This document shows positions 24,324 through 59,245 of a DNA stretch of 64,000 bases, piece by piece. A model generated the notes under the pieces. It saw only the letters and a list, made by a program, of their open reading frames with translations, was not told where the DNA came from and did no database searches. A program made the position numbers and the translations under genes. The first letter of the stretch is position 1. Every line of letters starts with the position of its first letter. The stretch is taken from the NCBI GenBank assembly GCA_903813345.2, contig CAIIXF020000005.1:18665375-18729374 (forward strand). The letters are read 5' to 3'. The stretch comes from Owenia fusiformis (Eukaryota > Annelida > Polychaeta > Sabellida > Oweniidae).

Positions 24324-27300
24324 GTAAGTGTGCATAATTATAAGTAAATGCTATTATCATAAGTCATGATAACTACCCTGAACATGTTCTTTCTGTATTT
24401 AATTCTTCGTTGTCTGTAACTTGGCACATATACAGACAGAAATAAGAAGCCATACATTTGGCAAATATTATTATTACATAGAGATCAATAGATAGGAATA
24501 CCCATAGAAGTTCAGGGTCTGAGGGTGGTCGTTTTCCTCATATCTTTGTCATTTTAGGAAATTACTATCTGCTTTTGACATATTGTACATCATTCAATTT
24601 CCTACCAGCCTACCATTTTTCATGACAATCAGACTGATAGTCACAATGTAGAGCACTTAAACAACATGCTCCGGGTGCGACCATCATCGTGCTGTAGGCA
24701 AACCTGCACGAATCAATGACCCGACTGCATTCTTCAGCAGGTATGGCCGGAAGGACACGAATGATCTCCCTTTTGAAGTCTGCAATTATCCTTCTATAAG
24801 GCCATTCTGCATGACAGGTATATCCAGAATTATGGCAATGTCTATACTTTCTATACATTGTCTATACTTTCTATACTTTCTATACTTTCGAACTGCTTTT
24901 TCCTATAACTGTCTTAGACAAATCAGATGTCTATACTTTCTATACTTTCTATACTTTCGATCTGCTTTTCCCCATATAGGTAACCTATATCCAGAATTAT
25001 GGCAATGTCTATACTTTTTTTTTAATTCACCAAAATCGAAAGTGAACAAGAAACTTATGACGTCACATATTATTATTCCGCTTTTTGACCACCCTGTAGG
25101 AGATAAAGATACCCCGCCATTAATGTGGTAGAGATAGCATACCAATAGATGTGGGAAAGATAAGGATACCAATAGACGTGGGAAATATAATGAAACCCAT
25201 TGACGTGAGAAATATAATTATACCCATACACGTGGAAAATATAAGTTTACTCATAGAAGTGGGAAAGATAAGGATATCAATTAAAGTGGGAAATATATGG
25301 ACACCCATTGCTGATATGGGGAAGATCAAGTGGCGTAGCTACATGTACCAAAGTAAGAACGTCCGTACTCTTAAAATCAGAAAAATAATATTTTCCATAT
25401 TCTCGCTCTTCACCCTTTTCTCGACAGTCAATGGATCTGAGTCCCAATAAAGAACCAAATAACTAAAAGATTTGAAGTCATCTTATCCCGAGTAACCCAA
25501 GATAATCTGCCGAATCATTGAACGTAGCGACGCAGAACAGACTTAGGAATACATGTTAGTCCCAAAGCGAAATGACACTATGGGGCCACGAATATGCGTG
25601 AAGAGATGGTACAAGGCGAGGAACATCCCGATTTCACTAAATGAAACAATCCAACATACCCCTTTACACTTAGTACAACTTTCCACGTGTCTGCACATAT
25701 CGAAGTATTTGCAGTTCGAAATCGACGTGTGCAGTCATAATTTATTTCTGAGATGCGTGACACAACTGCATGGGAGATTTCTACTAGATTGCAGCACTGA
25801 TGTCTTTAGAAGTGGGAGAGATATGGATACTCATAGACGCGGAAAATATTATGATCCCCATGAAGTACCGTAAATATCCTGATAGTTCCTGTCCTTGTAC
25901 AAAATAACTTAGTTATTTAAAACTAAATGCATTTTTACCTCTATAGATAGTTGGCATCGCAGAACCAAGAAAAGAGGTACTCGATCATTGCCAGACTGCC
26001 TACAATGTTGCAGACAAGTACTGTTTTCAGAGTGAGAATACCGTTTTTTTCTAAATGCATAACAATGATTTCTTCGATGCAGATGCAGTCGTCTTTCTTC
26101 CTAAAAATATACATGTATCATATTGTGAATAAAAATGAAATACATTCCACACAAAGCCTAACATATGTTTTACATACAGTGACATACTACACAGTTTGTT
26201 TGATGGCTTCCACCCTATGCAGACAGAGCCTGTGGGAAATATTGGGTGCGGCGCAAATGAGCGGAGGGTGCGGAGCTAACGGTCATTTTTGAATTTAAAA
26301 TTGGGATATTTCTGAAACTAAGCCGTTTTGGGACTTCAAATATACCAAGATATGTGTATTTGACACCAAATATCAATAAGATTGTGAAAATAGTAGTGCA
26401 ATTTATTTTATAGCGACGCATTATGCCTTAAACATTTCCAAGACCTATATATTTTGAGAATATCCTTTTAATACTGCGTCCCCAGCATTCATAAAAAATG
26501 GTGTTCAAGATACACTACCCATGCAAATTATTTTTGCATCTTGGAAGCCAGACAGTATCTGTGTGATTTTATAAAAATTCGGAAATGTTCTTCAGATATG
26601 AGCCCCCTCTAAATATTGGGTGCGGAGGTACGTTTATGGAGCTCCTCCGCACCCAATATTTAGAGGGGGCTCATATCTGAAGAACATTTCCGAATTTTTA
26701 TAAAATCACACAGATACTGCCTGGCTTCCAAGATGCAAAAATAATTTGTATAGATAGTGTACCTTGAACACCATTTTTTATGAATGCTGGGGACTCAGTA
26801 TTAAAAGGATAATTTCAAAATATATAGGTCTGGGAAAGGTTTAAGGCACACTGCGTCGCTATAGAATGAATTGCGCTACTATTTTCAGAATTGTATTGAT
26901 ATTTGGTGTCAAATACACATATCTTGGTATATTTGAAGTCCCAAAACGGCTTAGTTTCAGAAATATCCCAAATTTAAATTCAAAAATGACCGTTAGCTTG
27001 GCACCCTCCGCTCATTTGCTCCGCACCCAATATTTCCCACAGGCTCTGTCTGCATAGGGTGGCTTCAGAGAGTCACTTTTTCAATCGAATCGAATATCGA
27101 ATCTATTTAATCTCAGTGCAAATGTCTCGCTTTCAGAGAGCAACCAAGGGGCGACGTTTTATGTAATGTAAAGTTATTTTTCATTAAATTTTAAAATCTG
27201 TTGGAGCTGATAGAAACTGACTATATAGATATTTTTCTGATAAACATTATTTTTTAGGTTGGGAAGATGCAGCGAAACTTGAAAAATTTGCTGACTGTGT

Positions 27301-30300
27301 TATTATATGTACTCTTGAATCCGAACACATGGTAAGACAAGCCTATAATTACATATTGCCTCAAAGTAATTTTCAATGATTTCCTTTTAAATTCTAAAAA
27401 TATAGTTTTTTTTAATATTGTTCGATTGATATTTTTATCATCCTTGAGAATTTACTTGAAAGATAATATACTGTGTTAATGAGAAATGCCACATTTAAAT
27501 TGAGAAAGTATTTATGGTAAAATATATGACCGTCTAAAATCACTTGCCATACTGTACCTGAGGCCTCATTATCAGTTGGTCGCAAACTATGTGCGTTGCG
27601 ACAGCGATCGCAGAACGCAACGCTTGAGTTGCGTCTTATTTTCAGTTGATGTCGATGGTATTAGGTTTGGTATGTTAACGAAGACGCATTTCACATATTT
27701 AGTCCCTCGCTTTTGTTACACTGACGATCGGCATTAATATTGCCAATATTACACTGATATTGGTCGTTCGTCAGTGTAACAAAAGCGAGGGACTAAATAC
27801 GTGAATTGTGTCTTCGTTAACATGTAAAACCTAAAACCATCGCCACACTCTCAAACTAGACTATCTTCATTAACTTCGGGCCAAATTATTATCCACAACA
27901 TGACTTATAAGTAGGTGTAAATCGGGAAATAAAAAGATCTTACCGAAACCTAGTCCCGGAAGTAGTTCCGCCATGATACACTGACGATACGTCTGTGTAA
28001 CTAGGTGGGTAGCAGTGAAGAGCAAGAGTTATTAATATGTCTCATTGAAAAAAGAGGCACATATTTTATTGTCTCCGGTAGGTAGTTCTGTTACTGGAGA
28101 GGTTAAGCTAACGATGTTTTTCACAACGTAACCGTGAACGCAAAGTACAAAAATTAACAAAGGAATGTATCGAGCGCTCATAGTTTTATGCGCGCTTAGT
28201 CTACTTCAGATACTCTTTCAGCTTCAGAGTTTCGCGTTTAGAACGGGAGATTTTACAATTTGACGTTGGGTCAACGGGAACCATTTTACTCGTGTCTATT
28301 GAGCAATATGCTGTCAATTTTGATTTCGATGCACAGTTGAATTCTTGCTGAACACGATGATGTATGTCATGCATGATTTAGCGCCAAAAATCTTACGAAA
28401 CGAGCTCGTTTAAAATATGTATTAGAAAACCAGCTATAAAACCGCATCAATGACATACTATAGAATCATTACACGCTATGGTGTAGTCTAAACAAACACT
28501 GGATTTGAACGGCTATTTATATGAGAAGGCTACATGAATTTGTATATGGTCGAGTGATACGTACAGGTTCAGTTTCGATTATTTATGCAAAGCTTAACCT
28601 CTCCATTGTGTCAATTGCAATATGATATTTTCCGAGGCCAATATCGTATTTTCTCAAGAAAAATTCTTATATCATCATGATCATCAATAACCTTATTTAT
28701 GACATTCAATAATATTTTTCTGAAACTTGTTTTGTATGTCGCGACGCAATAACGGTGACATAAAATGATACACCTGAATTTATCGAATGACATTTTCAAC
28801 TTTTACTAACAATTTTTAAAGTAGGAATAATTATTTGTTATTACTAAAACGGATCATACAAAATATGACATGATAACACAATATCAAGACTCGTGAAATT
28901 TTCTGATAATTCTGATACAGGATTTTGGCTGATACTGGTTCTAATACGGGACTTTAGCTGATATGGGATCTGATACGGAATATTTTGAATGCAAGATTTA
29001 TTCCCAGTTCATTTCCCAGGGAAAAAATGCTAGTGTGGAATAATATGGGTTAATTAGACCCAATACATAATCCCTAGGAAATATTCTACATTCCCTATTG
29101 CTACTGAGATTGTCCCCTACGTGCCATTATTTTCTCTATTGCGACAGAGATGATCAAATGGTACAGTCTCATTAGCAAAACAGATTGGTACATCACAATA
29201 ACTAGCCAATCGGAGGGCTTCATTTTACAGATTATACGAAAATAATTAATGTGAAGGATTTTTCTTTTAAAACCTTGAAAATTCTAAATGAATATGGGAG
29301 ATGATAATCACAATTTTCCAGAATTTTATTTACGTACTTCACGCCCGGTGATCGTACAAAAATGATGGAGGGGGGGGGGGGGGGGATTAGGCGATTTCTG
29401 CAAGAAAACTCAACAAATTTGGAAGATTTGTTTTTTCAAGAAAAAATTTACAACTGAATTGCCAAATGAATAGGCGCAGTGCATGGCAAAATATGTTAGG
29501 CTATCTAGTATTTTTTTGAACTGATACCCTTCTAAGATATGAGGTCTATTAAAAAAGCGCATCATCACCAACGTGCAAAAGTCAATGTGTCAATGTTTTT
29601 GCTATAAATCGGGCAACAATGCATGACCTGTAATGAATAGGTATAAGGGACGTTATTGTCACAATACCAATGACATTGCTCACTTTTTAAAGTTAGTTTC
29701 CATGCGTTATACAAAACATAATCGAAATAAATTAATTTGGGATGGAGGGGGGGGGGGGAATCAGATGGAAGGGGATCACGTGTATATAAGACATGATAAG
29801 ACGTGCTACTTGAATCTATTCTTATGACTCCAAATTTTCCCATGTTTCATTCTCCAGAGATATAATATCCAGTTTCTTACTGGGGTAATGAGTTTAGTTT
29901 TTTCAAATACACGAGTTCTTGTGAATTTGTTCCATCGCAAAGATATATAAATCCCCCCTCCACCCGATCCCCCCCCCCTCCATCACAAATTAATTTATTT
30001 CGATTATTTTTCGTATAACGCATGGAAGCTTACTTTAAAAAATAAGCAATTATTAATGTCATACGAATTGTGATAATAACGTCCCTTATACCTATTTCTT
30101 ACAGGTCGTGTAGACCATTGTTGCCCGATTTATAGCAAAAAATGACTTTTGCACGTTGGTGATGAGGCGCCTTTTTTAATAGATCTCATATCACCCTATG
30201 CAGACAGAGCCTGTGGGAAATATTGGGTGCGGCGCAAATGAGCGGAGAGTGCGGAGCTAACGGTCATTTTTGAATTTAAAATTGGGATATTTCTGAAACT

Positions 30301-33300
30301 AAGCCGTTTTGGGACTTCAAATATACCAAGATATGTGTATTTGACACCAAATATCAATAAAATTGTGAAAATAGTAGTGCAATTCATTTTATAGCGACGC
30401 ATTATGCCTTAAACATTTCCCAGACCTATATATTTTGAGACTATCCTTTTAATACTGCGTCCCCAGCATTCATAAAAAATGGTGTTCAAGATACACTACC
30501 CATGCAAATTATTTTTGCATCTTGGAAGCCAGGCAGTATCTGTGTGATTTTATAAAAATTCGGAAATGTTCTTCAGATATGAGCCCCCTCTAAATATTGG
30601 GTGCGGAGGTACGTTTATGGAGCTCCTCCGCACCCAATATTTAGAGGGGGGCTCATATTTGAAAAAATTTCCGAATTTTTATAAAACCACACAGATACTG
30701 CCTGGCTTCCAAGATGCAAAAATAATTTGTATAGATAGTGTACCTTGAACACCATTTTTTATGAATGCTGGGGACTCAGTTTTAAAAGGATAATTTCAAA
30801 ATATATAGGTGTGGGAAAGGTTTAAGGCACACTGCGTCGCTATAGAATGAATTGCGCTACTATTTTCACAATTGTATTGATATTTGGTGTCAAATACACA
30901 TATCTTGGTATATTTGAAGTCCCAAAACGGCTTAGTTTCAGAAATATCTCCCAAATTTAAATTCAAAAATGACCGTTAGCTCCGCACCCTCCGCTCATTT
31001 GCTCCGCACCCAATATTTCCCACAGGCTCTGTCTGCATAGGGTGCATATCCTAGAATGGTATATCAGTTCAAAAAATTACTAGATGACCTAACATATTTT
31101 GCCATGCACTGCGCCTATTCATTTGAAAGAAATATTATGGTAAACAATATTTAAGATACCCTGGTCAGTGCTCATTTCGTATTCTTAGCGAATATTCTGG
31201 TTCAAACAAGTTTATCAACTCCATCACCAATGCTCTGGGCATTCTATACCTTTGCAACATCTCAGAATCATCTAGTGTATCAATTGGATTGATTCTATCT
31301 CGAAATATTCTCAGTCCTATGCGATTGTGGAGTCGATTCAAAAAGAAGTGGAACATGTTTAGCTTTCTTCCCGCCGCTTCCGGAGTGCTATTTGCAGACG
31401 ATATATCCGATGCGTTAGCATTGTTTGGAAACAAACATGATATTCTTGAAGGATTTACAAGCTTGACAAAATGTATGTTACAATGATATAATATAGATAT
31501 GATTGAATCATTCCTTCGGTAAAGATATTGTCAACTTAATAGGTAATGAGATGATTCACAAAAAAACACCGGAAAACAACCATTAACATATAAGAAATAG
31601 TGTTTAAAGATGCACTACATTTGGGTTTTGATTTGCGGCAGGGTAAAAAGAATAGTACAATAACGTCATTTCTAAGGGCGATATAGTGAAATATTGGACC
31701 GAGGGCCGAAGTTCAGTGTAAGTCAAAATGGCATACGAACCGAGTAGAAATATATATATTTCAATGTTAACCTATGACTTAATAATATTAGGGATGTTTA
31801 GCTAGACAGTGATATAATAAAACAAATATTTCACTCTATTTTCGGTGAATACCTGTAGCACTTTCACAAGGTGATATTCCACTTGCCCTTCGGGCTTCGT
31901 GGAATATCACTTGTGAAAGATGTACAGGTATTCACCGAAAATAGAGTGAAATATTTGTTCAATATTGCTCGTAGAAATGACGTTATTAGTATTATTACCA
32001 ACGTTAACGACCAGAGGCCTCATTATCCGGTCGACGCACCGCAAATCGCAATCGCAACGTAAATATTTAGCGAATCGTACGCAAAACGATATTATGAGGT
32101 CATCTCAAAGGCACTCTAGCGCAAATTCATTGTCGTTTTGCGTCTTTAGCGCAAATCGCAGTTTTCTTATTACACGGTAGACGCATCGCTATTTTCATTT
32201 CGCATCGCAAATACACTGCTAACCGCACGCAAATTGGTATTATGCAGTCATCGCACAGTTGCGTCCACGTAAATCAGTTGATTTTTATGTCGCAAACTCC
32301 ACTTTATTTGCGGCATCCCTGACCCTGCCGCAATATAAATCGCAAACATATCATCAAGCATCTTGATAGTTTTCCTATTTAAATTAAGATTATCGTTGTA
32401 GAAATCTAGGAAGTGCCCTTTGAGACATCCAACTAAAAATAGGTTGAAAAACATTAGAGACACAAATAACCAAAACTTATCAAAATCAAGTCTGAAAGTG
32501 CACGATTATGCTACCTTGGTTTTGTGAAATCTATAATAAATATCGCAATTCCATTTCGCATATCGTCTGCTAAAATTAAAATATTAGGGTTCGATCAAGC
32601 TGGAAAATGTGGCGCATATTATTCCAGGATGTTCACAATAGAAGAGGTTTACGCTTATTCAGAGACAGGAGTCAGCCGTTAGAGATGACTGACGATGAGA
32701 TATTAAACAGATATCGCATGCCGAGGCCACTCATTCTTGAGTTGATTAATATATTAGATGGGGGTCTAGCGTCAAGAACAAGGAATCCTCAGGCAATTCC
32801 ATGTCAGCTAAAAGTATTCATTTCATTACGATTTTATGCTACAGGTTGTATGCAAATGATAAATGGAGATATATTCGGGGTATCCCAACCTACTGTTTCG
32901 AACATTGTTGCTGAGGTATCGGCGGTTTTCTCTAGGTAGGCTATATCAGTCGGACTAATTACAAAGACACCGTGTCTTGTTTTCAAGATGGGCTGCCTTC
33001 CAGTGACAGATCTAGATTTTCGCAAGATATATATAGGTTGTGTAGTGGGAGGGATTCAATATGGGTTTTATTATGATGGACAATATGATATTTACCGAGA
33101 GCCCGGAGGGTCAGAGGGAAATACCAAATTGTCCCTCACAATATGTGAAATATCAAATTGTCATGAGGAATAAACCCATATTTAATCCCGACCAGTAAAT
33201 TAGCTTTTTATTCCATGATATTCATAACTGTCTTCATAAAATCATTAGTTAGATTTTTCTATGAAAAAATGGTATATTTAATCAAGAAAATATGACTTAG

Positions 33301-36300: not shown

Positions 36301-39300
36301 CATAAGAAAGCGTATGTTGCTTATAATATTTTATTTGCACATCATAAATGCAACAAGGCGCTATACATAATATGAATACAACCGTACAAAAATCAAATTA
36401 CAGTCAATCAAAAATACAGGCATATTGAATTAAAAGTTTTTGATTAAATTTTCAATCCACAATGCTAAAACAGTTTCCCTTTCTATGATATGAAATATAG
36501 ATTCATAAAATTGTAAATTTGTAACAAAAGCTGTTCTTATATCAAATCTTTTCCAACTCTCGTGTTCAGAAAAATTGCACCAATTATTATAAATTGTTAT
36601 GCCAAGTTGGGTCTTAAACAATTGGGCAAAAACATGACGAAATTTAAATCTGTAGTCACGACGGCCCAACCAAGATTAAATATTCAACTGATAATCTTGA
36701 CGCATTCTGATTTTAAAATGAAGTGAAAACAAAAAAGACAGTTGCAGTGAAAAATGTTAATCAAATGGAAGACCTATTAGTACACGGAATTCATGTTTCT
36801 TATAATTTTTGATGGAACAAATCGTGAAACTTTGTGGGGTGGTTCAGTATGGTATTTCAAGCAATTTTAGTCGCCTGTACAAGCCTCATTTTGGAAAAAT
36901 GTCATGTTATACCCCTAAGCCATTTTCGGGGAGGGGGTCAAAAATGAAAAAATCATAGCTCTCCAAATTTTTAGATATCAGGCCATTTTATGATAAATTT
37001 GATGATTACAAAGAATATGTCACACTCAAAAAAATTATTTGAGCTGAATTTAATTTAAAAGTCTCTTTTTAACCCTTTGACAACCAATATTTTGAAATGT
37101 CTAATAGACAAATACTTTCTAAAAGGATCAACATTTTTTTAATTCCTTGATATTTTTTACTGTAAAAAATCACAGATGGTGTGGAGGCTATTCCTAATAC
37201 CCATGCAAAATCATGATAAAAATATTAAGTATGAATAGAATAAAAAAAATCTTTAGCATACTGGTGCTTCTTCCAGGATTGAAGGGGTACCATTGAAAAT
37301 TGATAAAATCTAGCAAGTCATATATCTTAAGCATATCACAAAGATTCAAATTGACTTCAGATCCATGTAGGGTACCTCAAGACATGCAAAATTTGATTGT
37401 TGATATTTTATGAATCACTTTCAAAAGTGCTGATTCGGCACATTTTAACATTTCTGAGTCTGAGTTTGACATTATGTTGAGAACTGTTTAATGGTTCACT
37501 TGACAAAAGAGCAATAGTTCTAGCATTTACAGGGTGATCCAGAAGTAACGTCAAAGATGTTGTAATTTCAAAAGTATTCATCAGATCTTCATGAAATTTG
37601 GTATACATGTACCCACAACATTTCTGAGTTACCATCTCAAAGATTGGAATTCAATCATTTCATTGGTTGAAATTATGGTTGCTATAGTAACCCGATATCG
37701 CGTAACCCGGGGCAAATTACTTAACGTGTAATGCGTAATCTCAAAATATCAACAAGATCTGAAATTGTTATATCCTCAACATTTTATTTCACAACAATAT
37801 AAATCATACTATTGCACAGTTACTAATAATAGTTCATTCTACATAATTGCCACCATTTGCAACACATTTCTCATGTCTGGATACCCATTCCTTGAACACA
37901 GAATTAAATCCATTAGAACTCATTCCTTGTAGGGCTAGTACTACGGCATTTTTCAATTCCTCACAGGATTGAAAATTATTTCCACTAAGGTTTCTTTTTA
38001 GTTCCCCATACAAATAAAAGTCACTGGGGGCAAGATCAGGTGAATAAGGGGCATGTTCAAGTTGTTGAAATCCAAGTGTTTGGACTGTGTTGCTGGTCAG
38101 GATTGCAGTGTGCGTAGGGGCATTGTCCCAATGCAAGATAAACTGCTGCAGATGTCCGGGACGCTTTTTCCTCAGGGAACGTTGAAGATCACGCTTCAGA
38201 ACCTGAAAAACAAATGTTTAATGGTTGTTAAACCAGTTGTTTCATTGATTGGATTTGGATTTGAATCATGGCCATGGAGTTATAATTATATTGACAGTGA
38301 ACAACATTTAAATACTTTAATTTAAAAATAAAATTCACAGTATGATGTATTATTAGAACAAATGATATCTTACCTTTGCAATGTAAACGGCATTAATTCT
38401 CTGGCCAATGGGAACAAAATGGGTTAACACCATTCCTCTAATGTCAAAGAATGTCACAACCATTTGTTTCTTTTGTGGAATTCCTGGTACTATTTTAGGC
38501 TTGGTTGGTGTTGGGGAGTTGTCATGTTTCCACGATGAACTTTGTTGCGTGGTCTCTGGGATGTAGAATGATAGCAATGATTCGTCACTCGTAATGATCT
38601 TGTTAAGAAAGTCATCTCCATCTCTCCGATATTTTGCAAGAAAGTCCCTTGAAGCCTTAACACGCCGGTCTTTCTGCTCCTGTGTCAAGTCATGCAGCAC
38701 CCATTTAGCAGACACCTTCTTTAACAGACAGTTCTTTGTCAGTATCCGTTGCACAGTCCCATAGCTCAGATCGTGTTTTTCAGCCAATTCTCTGATAGAA
38801 ATTTGCCTATTGTCCATAACATCAGCTTCAATTGCTTTGATGGTTTGATCATCGAATGACGACACTGGCCTGCCTCCTCGCTGCTTGTCTACCACTTCAT
38901 CATATCCACTGGAATACTTGTTAAACCACCTGTAAATGTTTCTCTCAGCAATGGCAGCTTTACCATATGCCTTCTTTATCTGTCTTATAGTCTCTTTTAC
39001 ACCTTTCCCCAACTTTACACAGAACTTAATGTTTGTTCTTTGCTCTATTTTACTCTGACTTGGCGCCATCTTGAATTGGGTGGGTTAGTGTCCTTGGTCA
39101 TGTTAGTATTTGTCATGGATGATGGAAGCAATTCAAAGAAATTGAAAGCTTTTTATGAATGCCTATTGTGACATCACAACTATTACATATTTGTTACCAT
39201 GGCAACAAATATAAAAATCATAGAAAACAAACAATGAACATTTTCAAATGTTACTGACTTTTTAAATTAGAGAAATTCACAAAAACGTTATGGTTTCTCT

Positions 39301-42300
39301 TCAATTTGCCCCGGGTTACGCGATATCGGGTTACTATAGCAACCATAATTTCAACCAATGAAATGATTGAATTCCAATCTTTGAGATGGTAACTCAGAAA
39401 TGTTGTGGGTACATGTATACCAAATTTCATGAAGATCTGATGAATACTTTTGAAATTACAATGTCTTTGACGTTACTTCTGGATCACCCTGTACATCATA
39501 TGACATTAGAAAAATTATTGACTAAATACTTAAGTTTCACTAAAATATCGTTATCCATATAAAAGAATATGCAATTGCATAGATGAATTAGAAAAACACA
39601 CGGAAAGTATCACAACAGGCTTCAGACATTTACAAGTTGGATTTTTGGTTGGGCTGTTTCTGAGGTTTTAAACAGGAGAATATGTTAGACCAATGCATTA
39701 ACTCCAGGACAAGCACTCATAGAGATGATAAAAAGATTTGAACTTGAGACAGGAAAGGTGCAAACATCCCACCAACATGTTTTTTCAATGCTTGATGCAT
39801 CATTTTACAGGGTGTCCCGAAAGTTTGCCCCCCCCCCTAGGCAGACATATACCAGTGTCATCATTGTATGAGTCATATATCATTTTAAAGCTCATCCAAA
39901 GTTACATTGAATTGCCAAGAATCATGATTCAACTCTCAAATGGGAAAAAGTGATAGTCATTTTAAAATTTAGTGTTTGGCCAAAATAAAGTTCAATTTCA
40001 CACCCCATTACAAGTCAATGAGTCCTCCCTTGGTCATGTTATCAGCAGCAATTCTTTTCAGATAGGACCATAAAAGCTCTACGGGGTGTGGAATTTTGTA
40101 ATCCTCTTAAAACCTTATAAGGCACTTTTGAAGAGTTTCCTTGGAGTATCAACCCTCACCGTCTCTTTTTCCAACTCAATATCCATCCAACCCAAAAAGA
40201 ATTGCTGCTGTTAAGATGGCCCTGGAGGACACATTGACTAGTTATTAGGTGTTAAATTGAATTGAATTTTGGGCAAACACTAAAAATTGAAATGCCTGTA
40301 ATTTTTTCACATTTGAGATGATACTTGCCGAATCAATGTAACTTTGGATAAATGATATGATACGTACTATGAAGACAATGGAATATGTCTGCCTAGAGGG
40401 GATACTTTCGGGACACCCTGTATGTTGTGTTTTGAGACAGAGTTAACTCTTAAAAGGAAAAATGCATTCCTTTGAGATAAAGTGGAAAACAATATTTCCC
40501 ATGGTATTTTCCCATATCCCATAGGGAAAACTCATGCAATCAATTGTGTTCAGCTTAATTTTGGTCACCCACAATTGACATCTTTAAAACCCCTGATTGA
40601 ATGCATTTTTTCTTTTAAGAGGATAACTGTGTCCCAAAACGCAACATATTGATGAAACAAACATTAAAAAAACAGATGCGGAAAGGACTGAAAAGCAGAC
40701 AAATCTCAGGCGAAATATGTTGATGGTGTGTTTGCAACTTCCTGTCTCAAACTCCACTCTTGGTTTTGAGGGATAAGAATAAAAGCATTGGATATGGGTT
40801 GGAAGGAGGGTGACCTGACTTTTTACTGATAATGGTGCTTAGGTCTAAGTTGTGTCCTGATTTTTGACTGCTAAATAGGACTACTTCAAATGACCAAATG
40901 GTATGAATGTGGGTCGTGTCACCCATGAAAATCTTCACAGTACCAATCAAAATATTTGTTTCACCGGGAGTCACACTTATAAATGTTAATTTTTGGTCTT
41001 CTATTAATAGAAGCTATTGATTTGATGTTTACCTTGTATAATTACACTGGGATTCATTGAAATTATCATTTAAATTTTGTTTTGTTTATTCAGGCAATGG
41101 GATTACATGCTAGAATAGTCTAAAGAGGTAAAACACATTGGATGCAATAATGCTGGTATGGCTTTTCTCTCCTGTTACTATGTGCTGTGTCACCTGTGAA
41201 TATCTTCACATCACTAATCAAAAGTCTCCAAATATTTGTTAAACGAGCAATCACACCTTTGAATGATAATTTTATGAATGATAATTTTACGACTGTTATT
41301 GAGGTCATTTTTTGTCTCATATTTCTAATCAAGTTCTCCATTCTGTATAACCCTATAAAGTGTCAAAGAGAAAGGACCAATCGTTCCGGAACCCAGCAGA
41401 AAAAAGAAGAAATCTAAGTATAGACCAGTCATAAGGAAAACAAACCCCAACTATCCAATACCATAATCCAATGTGAATGGGAAACAATGTCTAATGCCCC
41501 TCATCCCTACCATAAAAAATTTACAGTTCAGACTATTTAAAAGAGCATATTCTTTTTCATTGCCTATTATCACTGACTCTTTTTGAAGCACTTAGTATTC
41601 TTTTGGCAGGAATTCCATCTCAATCAGCTTTAACACTTATTGTTACTGTTATGATATTTGATTTCAAATGTTCAAGGATAAACAACTAGATTGTTTAAAT
41701 ATCAGCAGAAGATGTTATTTGCTCATCTGAACCCCGTCACCTGTACTTATCTCATAAAGAGCAAGTTAACCCTTAATTGGGCTTTTGTTTTTACACCCTC
41801 TCAAGGTTTTTGGGGTATTTCGCAATAACTTTGCAACCAGAGAAGCTTTTTTCATTCTGACTTCAGTTCTACATAGTTTAATCAATTACCTTTTAGAATA
41901 TGTATGCATTATTTATCATGAATGCAAGAAAATATGTGAAAACCTTATTATAAGTGTTCAGGTGTTTTAGCATTGTATCATTTCGTAGCATTTAGTATAT
42001 AACCCTGTATGAATTGAATATCTTTTGGTGATAGTGATGTTCTGTGGTCTCAGGTAGCATAAAAGTCATCATGTGATTTACATCTGGTTGGTTTTATCTG
42101 AAAGGAATTGGATTAATTGAGGATTAGATGGAATTTCCTGTTGATAGAATGATTATTTCTGATATAATTATTGCAAAGAATGAACTCTGGTGACCCAAAA
42201 AACCATTTAAGGGTTAATGGTGTGTAATAATAAAATCTACATATTATAATACCATGTGTAGTTTGTAAGCGCTCTTCAAACAATTAACTATATCGCCATG

Positions 42301-53640: not shown

Positions 53641-54832
53641 GGGAGCTACTAGGGGCTCCCTTAGAAACATTAGAGTCTATTAGAAAACCGCTTGGGCCCT
53701 ATAGGGAAAACAAGAGCCTACCAGTGAACCACTGGCAGCTACTAGTGAAACACTAGGGTGCCAATAGGGAATACCAATCGGGGTAATTAGAGCATCACCA
53801 GGGGCTACTAGAGAACCAATTGGGACAACTAGGGCACCACCAGGGGCCACTAGAGAACCAATTTGGGTAACTAAGGTGCCACTAGGTGATACTCAAGAAC
53901 CAATTTGGGTAACTAGAGTACTGTGCCACTGGGGGCAACAAGAGAACTGATTGGGGTAACTAGCGTGCCACTGGAGGGCGCTAGAGAACTAATTCGGATA
54001 ATTAGAGTACCATCAGGGGCTACTAGAAAACCAATTGGGGTAACTAGGTACTACTAAGGGCTACTAGAGAACCAATTTGGGTAACTAAGGTGCTATAGGG
54101 GCCTACTAGAGAACCAAATGGGTAACTAGGATGCTACTAGGGGCTACTAGAGAACTAATTTAGGTAACTAAGGTGCTATATGGGCCTACTAGAGAACCAA
54201 TTTGGGTAACTAGGGGGCTACTAGAGAACCAATTGGGGTAACTAAGGTGCTACTAGGGGGTACTAGAAAACCAACTTGGGTAACTAAGGTGCTATAGGGG
54301 CCTACTAGAGAACCAAATGGGGTAACTAGGATGCTACTAGGGGCTACTAGAGAACTAATTTTGGTAACTAAGGTGCTATAGGGGCCTACTAGAGAACCAA
54401 ATGGGTAACTAGGATGCTACTAGGGGATACTAGAGAACTAATTTAGGTAACTAAGGTGCTATATGGGCCTACTAGAGAACCAATTTGGGTAACTAGGGGG
54501 CTACTAGAGAACCAATTGGGGTAACAAAGGTGCTACTAGAGGCTACTAGAAAACCAACTTGGGTAACTAAGGTGCTATAGGGGCCTACTAGAGAACCAAA
54601 TGGGGTAACTAGGATGCTACTAGGGGCTACTAGAGAACTAATTTTGGTAACTAAGGTGCTATAGGAGCCTACTAGAGAACCAATTTAGGTAACTAGGGGC
54701 TACTAGAGAACCAATTAGGGTAACTAAGGTGCTACCAGGGGCTACTAGAGAACCAATTGGGGTAACTAAGGTGCTATAGGGGCCTATTAGAGAAACAAAT
54801 TGGGTAACTAGGGTGCTACTAGGGGCTTCTAC
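53640..54832. repeat. 42-bp minisatellite with higher-order period
   Basis: Nearly 28 units containing CTACTAGAGAACCAATTTGG then GTAACTAAGGTGCTA. In 54060-54660 variants recur in the same order at about 283-bp spacing (for example GTGCTATATGGGCC at about 54173 and 54456), showing a higher-order repeat. It stops exactly at the right arm of the element. Confidence 0.92.
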
Positions 54833-57604: not shown

Positions 57605-59245
57605 ACTGGGGGGGGGGGCTGTATAGCTCCTGGGGGCCACTGGGGGCCATCGTATAGCTTTTAAAGGCACTTTGAATATTTGATTTAACATTGAATTCAA
57701 TTGGACATGTTGGATATTTTCTTTAACAGTGAAATTTATTGGCTATGAAACATTTCAGATTGACAACATCGTGAATTTTTTGTCAGTGAAAATTTGGGCT
57801 TAGTTCTGGGGGCCACTGGGGGCCCTCGTATAGTTTCTGGAGGCCACTGGGGGCCACTGTGTAGCTTCTGGGGGTCACCATATAGCTTCTAGGGGCCATT
57901 TGGAGCCCCTGTATAGCTTCTGGGGGCTACCATATAGCTTTTTTGGGGCCACTAGGGGCCCCTGTATAGCTTCTGGGGGCTCCTGTATAGCTTCTTGGGG
58001 ACACTGGGGGGCCACCATATAGTTTTAGGGGGCCACTAGGGGCCCCTGTATAGCTTCTGGGGGTCACCATATAGCTTCTAGGGGCCATTTGGAGACCCTG
58101 TATAGCTTCTGGGGGCCACCATATAGCTTTTTTGGGGCCACTAGGGGCCCCTGTATAGCTTCTGGGGTCACCATATAGCTTCTAGGGGCCATTTGGAGCC
58201 CCTGTATAGCTTCTGGGGGCTACCATATAGCTTCTGGGGGGCCACTGGATGCCATCTTACAGCTTCTAGCGGCTACTGAGGGCCACCGTATAGCTTCTGG
58301 GTACCATCATATAGCTTCTGGGGCCTACCATATAGCTTCTTGGGGCCACCAGGGGCCCCTGTATAGCTTTTGGGGGCCACTGTAAAGCTTCTTGGAGCCA
58401 CTGGGGGCTACCATATAGCTTCTGGGGACTACTAGGGGCCCCTGTATATGCTTCTGGGGGCCACCATATAGCTTCCCTGGGCCACCTTATAGCTTTAGTG
58501 GGGTACTAGGGGCCACTGTATAGATTCTGGGGGCCCCTGTATAGCTTCTGGGGGCCACTGGGAACCACCGTAGAATTTCTGGGAGCTATCATAAAGCTTC
58601 TGGGGCCACTGGGGGCCATCGAATAGCTGTATAGATTCTGGGGGCCACTAGGTACCCTGTATAGTTTTTGGGGGCCCCTGTATAGCTTCTGGGGGCCACC
58701 ATATAGCTTCTAGGGGCCGTTTGGAGCCCCTATATAGCTTCTAAGGGCCCCTGTAAAGCTTCTGGGGGTCACCATATAGCTTCTAGGGGCCATTTGGAGC
58801 CCCTGTATAGCTTCTGGGAGCTACCATATAGCTTCTGGGGGCTACTAGGGGTCCCTGTATAGCTTCTGGGGGCTACCATATAGCTTCTAGGGGCCGTTTG
58901 GAGCCCCTATATAGCTTCTGGATGCCCCTGTATAGCTTCTGGGGGTCACCATATAGCTTCTAGGGACCATTTGGACCCCCTGTATAGTTTCTGGGGGCTA
59001 CTAGGGGTCCTTGTATAGCTTCTAGGGGCCACCTTATAGCTTATTGGGGCCACTGGGGGCCCCTGTATAGCTTCTGTGGCTACTGGAGGCCACCATATAG
59101 CTTCTGGGAGCCACCATTTAGCTTCTGGGAGCCACCATTTAGCTTCTGGGAGCCACCATTTAGCTTCTGGAGGCCACTGGGGGCCCCTGTATAGCTTCTG
59201 GAGGCCACTGGGGTCCATGGTATTGCTTCTGGGGGCCACTGGGGG
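57605..59245. repeat. GGGGGCCACTGGGGGCC minisatellite, 1.6 kb
   Basis: Irregular units of about 20-35 bp: GGGGGCCACCATATAGCTTC, TAGGGGCCATTTGGAGCCCC, TGTATAGCTTCT. A longer block recurs near 57860, 58065, 58165, 58765 and 58940, so there is higher-order structure. The stop-free frame 58946-59239 (-) is a translation of the repeat. Confidence 0.92.

What the first reader, a model, noticed from the sequence alone, without database searches (positions are those of the whole stretch)
37834..39069. Mariner transposase gene with a spliceosomal-type intron and otherwise intact DD34D frame
Seen: two open frames on the - strand join exactly (232 + 122 codons, phase 0) if a 171-bp GTAAGA...TTTTTCAG segment is removed. 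The joined protein has every mariner motif and DD34D spacing. Known: most mariner transposases are intronless. Inference: an intron was gained and has been kept while the coding frame stays open, so splicing may regulate transposition, for example giving a truncated 238-aa protein without two catalytic Asp when unspliced, as in P-element control.
Basis: partly seen in the sequence, partly recalled or inferred. Interest (0 to 1): 0.72.

Follow-up and report, generated by a model that had tools for sequence, protein, structure and literature searches.

The report
Mariner transposon with one predicted intron
This is a complete, apparently recent jumping gene of the mariner family whose single gene seems to be interrupted by one ordinary intron, which is uncommon for mariners but has precedents in related transposons.

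Summary
On the - strand, 39069-38374 (232 codons) and 38202-37834 (122 codons plus stop) join in phase 0 when 38373-38203 (171 bp, GTAAGA...TTTTTCAG) is left out. The joined 354-residue protein aligns nearly end to end with Mos1 transposase (E 1.1e-43), catalytic Asp at 162, 258 and 293: DD34D. The donor is the best of 105 GT sites in the element, the acceptor second of 108 AG sites, the pair best of 32 frame-keeping pairs tried (recalled matrices). A spliceosomal intron is very likely, without RNA proof. The P-element-like regulation idea has no support. Intron-bearing Tc1/mariner elements are known (Minos; TLEWI; passages). No other copy of this family was found, so whether the intron is a family trait is untested. 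Uncommon variant of a known kind; modest interest.

The parts
37530..39491 (-). whole mariner element, 1,962 bp, TA on each side (TA|CAGGGTG ... CACCCTG|TA)
39303..39491 (-). 5' terminal inverted repeat, 189 bp
   Evidence: 194-nt arms that include flanking bases, 98%; 191 bp with the TA, 98.95%, two differences
37530..37718 (-). 3' terminal inverted repeat, 189 bp
38374..39069 (-). exon 1, 232 codons: HTH domains, WVLHDL, first catalytic Asp (D162)
   Evidence: Pfam HTH_48 E 1.3e-8, HTH_32 2.5e-8 and Transposase_1 4.7e-7, each above its gathering score
38203..38373 (-). predicted spliceosomal intron, 171 bp, GTAAGA...TTTTTCAG; branch-point-like TTAAC 26 nt from its 3' end; in-frame TAA after 6 codons
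37834..38202 (-). exon 2, 122 codons and stop: catalytic D258 and D293, YSPDLAPSDFYLYG
   Evidence: alone only a sub-threshold Pfam DDE_3 match (E 0.0027)
37783..37788 (-). AATAAA polyadenylation-type hexamer inside the element, about 45 nt after the stop
   Evidence: motif match only

Best explanation
This is a complete, structurally autonomous mariner (DD34D) DNA transposon in an unidentified, probably animal, genome. Its single transposase gene is split by one short GT-AG spliceosomal intron in the catalytic domain, between the first and second catalytic aspartates. The host spliceosome removes the intron, giving a 354-residue transposase that binds the terminal inverted repeats and cuts and pastes the element at TA. 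Shown from sequence: frames, splice signals, inverted repeats, TA ends, near-full-length match to Mos1. Inferred: that splicing occurs, that it is constitutive, and that the protein is active.
For: Exact phase-0 join and open 354-residue frame; Mos1 match over residues 7-354, E 1.1e-43, 32% identity with the catalytic triad aligned; donor rank 1 of 105 and acceptor rank 2 of 108 in the element, best of 32 frame-keeping pairs tried; one branch-point-like TTAAC 26 nt before the 3' end, the only such match in the part of the intron scanned for it; exon G+C 42%, intron 25%; inverted repeats 187 of 189 identical with TA ends.
Against: No RNA evidence. Only one copy was at hand, so it is not shown that the intron is a family trait or that the frame is under selection. 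The acceptor is not the best of the element (38024 scores 3.7 against 3.6), and an in-frame alternative acceptor at 38146 comes close as a pair (8.4 against 9.5). The alignment to Mos1 has a one-residue gap two residues after the join. The shuffle control (0 of 1,000) is weak, because few shuffles keep GT and AG at the ends. The matrices were approximate, from recall.
Confidence: 0.85

Rival explanations
1. Regulated splicing: intron retention makes a 238-residue protein with the DNA-binding half and one of three catalytic Asp, which represses transposition, as recalled for the P element.
For: The unspliced frame does stop after 238 residues; it keeps the HTH domains and D162 but not D258 or D293.
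Against: Many introns with an early in-frame stop would give such a product. The donor is among the strongest 0.15% of GT sites in the window, and of the eight best donors of the element the nearest upstream is 38715, over 300 nt away. This is mild evidence only: weak GT sites at 38430, 38457 and 38460 exist, and the pseudo-donors recalled for the P element need not score high.
Confidence: 0.07
2. Copy-specific 171-bp insertion or local sequence gain that only looks like an intron.
For: Only one copy is available; two weakly related DNA matches read across the site without an insert (L001, with only 8 aligned residues before the join; H1).
Against: Exact protein join, best-ranked donor and pair, AT-rich interior, branch-point-like site; reading, the only repeat at the two junctions that I noticed is AGGT.
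Confidence: 0.06
3. The intron is an introner or small transposon that brought its own splice sites.
For: It sits at AG|GT on both sides.
Against: No second copy in the 64-kb window; exact inverted repeats inside it of at most 7 nt. One window says little about a whole genome.
Confidence: 0.03

Closest known systems
mariner family, Mos1 (DD34D, Tc1/mariner superfamily)
   Same: Near-full-length protein similarity, E 1.1e-43, 32% identity and the same catalytic spacing; TA ends
   Different: Most mariners are about 1,200-1,300 bp with a single ORF and 20-30 bp TIRs (PMC7325037, passage); this one is 1,962 bp with 189-bp TIRs and a predicted intron
Minos (Drosophila hydei, Tc1 family)
   Same: Layout: 1.8 kb, 254-bp TIRs, two-exon transposase gene with a 60-bp intron (PMC2874221, passage)
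   Different: Minos is placed in the Tc1 family with DD34E (PMC7325037, passage), although the passage of PMC2874221 prints DD34D; the intron positions were not compared
TLEWI, Tc1-like elements with spliceosomal introns in molluscs (Puzakov et al. 2020)
   Same: Introns within a Tc1/mariner transposase gene
   Different: 3-5 introns (PMC10379824, passage and its reference list); Tc1-like by the title of the cited paper, which is itself not held

Membership tests
mariner (DD34D) | DD34D catalytic triad | tested here: met
   D162, D258, D293; 34 residues between the last two
mariner (DD34D) | Mos1-type HTH plus mariner transposase domain | tested here: met
   HTH_48 and Transposase_1 above gathering score (exon 1); Mos1 match over residues 7-354
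mariner (DD34D) | TIRs flanked by a TA duplication | tested here: met
   189-bp TIRs, TA at both ends
mariner (DD34D) | single uninterrupted ORF and 20-30 bp TIRs (usual, not defining) | tested here: not met
   two open stretches and 189-bp TIRs, against the usual form described in PMC7325037 (passage)
mariner (DD34D) | place within a mariner subfamily on a tree | not tested
   no set of animal mariner sequences was at hand; the PDB search gave Mos1, SETMAR and Sleeping Beauty chains
spliceosomal intron (GT-AG) | consensus splice sites that restore a homologous protein | tested here: met
spliceosomal intron (GT-AG) | removal seen in RNA | not testable with these tools
   no RNA data
Minos and TLEWI (Tc1 family) | DD34E catalytic triad (Minos: PMC7325037; TLEWI: recalled) | tested here: not met
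   the third residue is Asp, D293
P-element-type splicing control | regulated retention of the intron giving a repressor | not testable with these tools
   no RNA; no strong competing donor near the real one among the eight best

The most novel reading that the evidence does not exclude
A lineage of animal DD34D mariners with long TIRs in which one intron at this position is fixed, and in which retention of the intron yields a 238-residue DNA-binding repressor, evolved independently of the P element.
Probability: 0.06. Interest if true: 0.65.

Novelty: new variant of a known kind. Interest (0 to 1): 0.3.

Why it matters
Tc1/mariner elements as a rule hold a single intronless ORF (PMC10379824, passage), and mariners proper are usually short with short TIRs (PMC7325037, passage). 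A complete, apparently young DD34D mariner with a predicted intron and 189-bp TIRs would show that the mariner family tolerates a Minos-like layout, and that such a copy depends on the host spliceosome, which could limit its spread between distant hosts (inference). It is also an annotation caution, since an ORF scan would call this gene broken. It is not a new mechanism.

Tried and rejected
Own-genome search: no genome is held for this window. Relatives: viral contigs with the joined protein (4 pattern stretches, none confirmed); genome contigs and viral contigs with the alignment to Mos1 (26 and 106 pattern stretches, none confirmed); the first 23 bases of the TIR in viral contigs (0); a degenerate DNA pattern for the YSPDLAPSDF motif in genome contigs (1 locus, L001) and viral contigs (0); tblastn in plasmids (1 record of 72,556, 26% identity over residues 178-354). 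These collections hold prokaryotes, viruses and plasmids, so missing an animal transposon in them means little. L001 is a mariner-like stretch broken by stops and a frame change in a contig titled Endomicrobium MAG, 32% identical over query residues 225-353 and continuous over the intron site; host DNA in the assembly is my guess. H1 lies in a Proteus plasmid record with no annotated feature under the match; I did not open it, and judge it continuous from its coordinates alone. Both are too distant to say when the intron arose.

Host identity: no tRNA, no Rfam match at gathering score. Of the 9 ORFs of 120 or more codons, 5 were sent to Pfam with no match above a gathering score, the 2 that hold the exons were sent as exons, and 2 (13453 and 56466) were not sent. 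The host stays unidentified.

Literature: 10 searches answered. Only passages were read, of 9 papers: PMC10379824, PMC2874221, PMC9783078 (12 of 14 places), PMC8533490, PMC8504770, PMC7325037 (in one search 12 of 39 places), PMC10294476, PMC3203195, PMC8151067. In those listings and passages I saw no report of an intron in an animal DD34D mariner. But subscription papers, such as the Crassostrea gigas Tc1/mariner survey seen only as a reference, are not held, and introns in plant mariner-like elements are recalled, not read. So I do not claim that it is unreported.

A scan for bacterial-type promoters over the 5' region is not informative for such a gene. NCBIfam gave only matches below its cut-offs, the best to IS630 transposase. 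No structure was predicted, since the joined protein is not encoded letter for letter in the window.

Full report
Observation. The minus strand of 37834-39069 carries two open stretches. Exon 1 (39069-38374, 232 codons) and exon 2 (38202-37834, 122 codons and a stop) join in phase 0 when the 171 bases 38373-38203 are left out, giving 354 residues; read without splicing the frame stops after 238 residues. The numbers in the finding are correct.

The element. The gene lies between inverted repeats of 189 bp (39491-39303 and 37530-37718) with two differences, or 191 bp when the flanking TA is counted. They begin CAGGGTGATCC and have TA on both sides, so that the element runs from 39491 to 37530, 1,962 bp. 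An AATAAA lies inside the element about 45 nt after the stop. There is no second copy of the element in the window. The repeat identity and the open frame suggest a fairly recent insertion, but repeat identity is not a clock (inference).

The protein. It aligns with Mos1 transposase over residues 7-354 (E 1.1e-43), 32% identical. The alignment runs over the join, with a one-residue gap two residues after it. The two exon products were scanned apart: exon 1 matches HTH_48, HTH_32 and Transposase_1 above their gathering scores; exon 2 alone gives only a sub-threshold DDE_3 match. The catalytic aspartates are at 162, 258 and 293, with 34 residues between the last two: DD34D.

The intron. Under generic metazoan matrices typed from recall, the donor ranks 1 of 105 GT sites in the element and within the top 0.15% of 6,694 GT sites of both strands of the window; the acceptor ranks 2 of 108 in the element and within the top 2.9% of 6,515 in the window. 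Of 32 GT-AG pairs in the stretch tried (introns of 60 bp or more around the gap) that keep an open frame, this pair scores highest, 9.5; the next uses an acceptor at 38146 (8.4) and would leave 335 residues. None of 1,000 shuffles of the intron gave as good a pair at its exact ends, which is a weak control because most shuffles lose GT or AG there (all). A TTAAC branch-point-like site lies 26 nt before the 3' end, and exact inverted repeats inside the intron reach 7 nt at most. G+C is 42% in the exons and 25% in the intron. This is what an ordinary short intron looks like. RNA evidence is missing.

Regulation. The 238-residue unspliced product would hold the DNA-binding half and one of three catalytic Asp. 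That follows from the place of the first stop in the intron and is not evidence of control. The strong donor, and the lack of another of the eight best donors within 300 nt upstream, speak mildly for constitutive splicing; weak GT sites do lie closer (38430, 38457, 38460).

Relatives. Searches of the collections at hand gave no member of this family; they hold no animal genomes. Two distant matches, L001 and H1, read across the site without an insert, and the Mos1 protein has no extra stretch there. This fits a gain in the lineage of this element, but 3 distant sequences cannot date it.

Comparison with what is known. Most mariners are 1,200-1,300 bp with one ORF and 20-30 bp TIRs (PMC7325037, passage). 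Minos, of the Tc1 family, has 254-bp TIRs and a two-exon gene with a 60-bp intron (PMC2874221, passage; family, PMC7325037, passage), and TLEWI elements, cited as Tc1-like elements with spliceosomal introns in mollusc genomes, have 3-5 introns (PMC10379824, passage and reference). So introns in this superfamily are known. What looks uncommon is the combination with a DD34D mariner and long TIRs; I could not establish from the 10 searches made whether this combination is in print.

Verdict. A real, complete mariner with a very probable intron: an uncommon variant of a known kind. The regulatory story is unsupported. Interest 0.3.

Noticed in passing
39806-40422: A 617-bp element with nested inverted arms over much of its length (81-92% complementary) and ends TACAGGGTGTCCCGAAAG...CTTTCGGGACACCCTGTA lies about 300 bp from the mariner; the ends share CAGGGTG with it, so it may be a foldback MITE of a related mariner.
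   Followed up: partly
26210-27061 and 30192-31044: Two copies of an about 854-bp palindromic repeat, 97.9% identical to each other and each about 93% self-complementary, with ends CACCCTATGCAGACAGAGCC.
   Followed up: partly
53773-54831 and 57804-59245: Long tandem arrays (units of about 42 bp, and of about 21 and 52 bp).
   Followed up: no
31165-31530 (-): 121-codon open frame that looked to me like part of a Harbinger-type nuclease; Pfam gave no match, so this is recall only.
   Followed up: partly
L001:2603-2989: Broken mariner-like sequence in a contig titled Endomicrobium MAG; perhaps insect host DNA in the assembly.
   Followed up: partly
H1, NZ_CP135988.1:4068-4592: Mariner-like match (26% identity) in an 8.4-kb Proteus mirabilis plasmid record with no annotated feature under it.
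   Followed up: no
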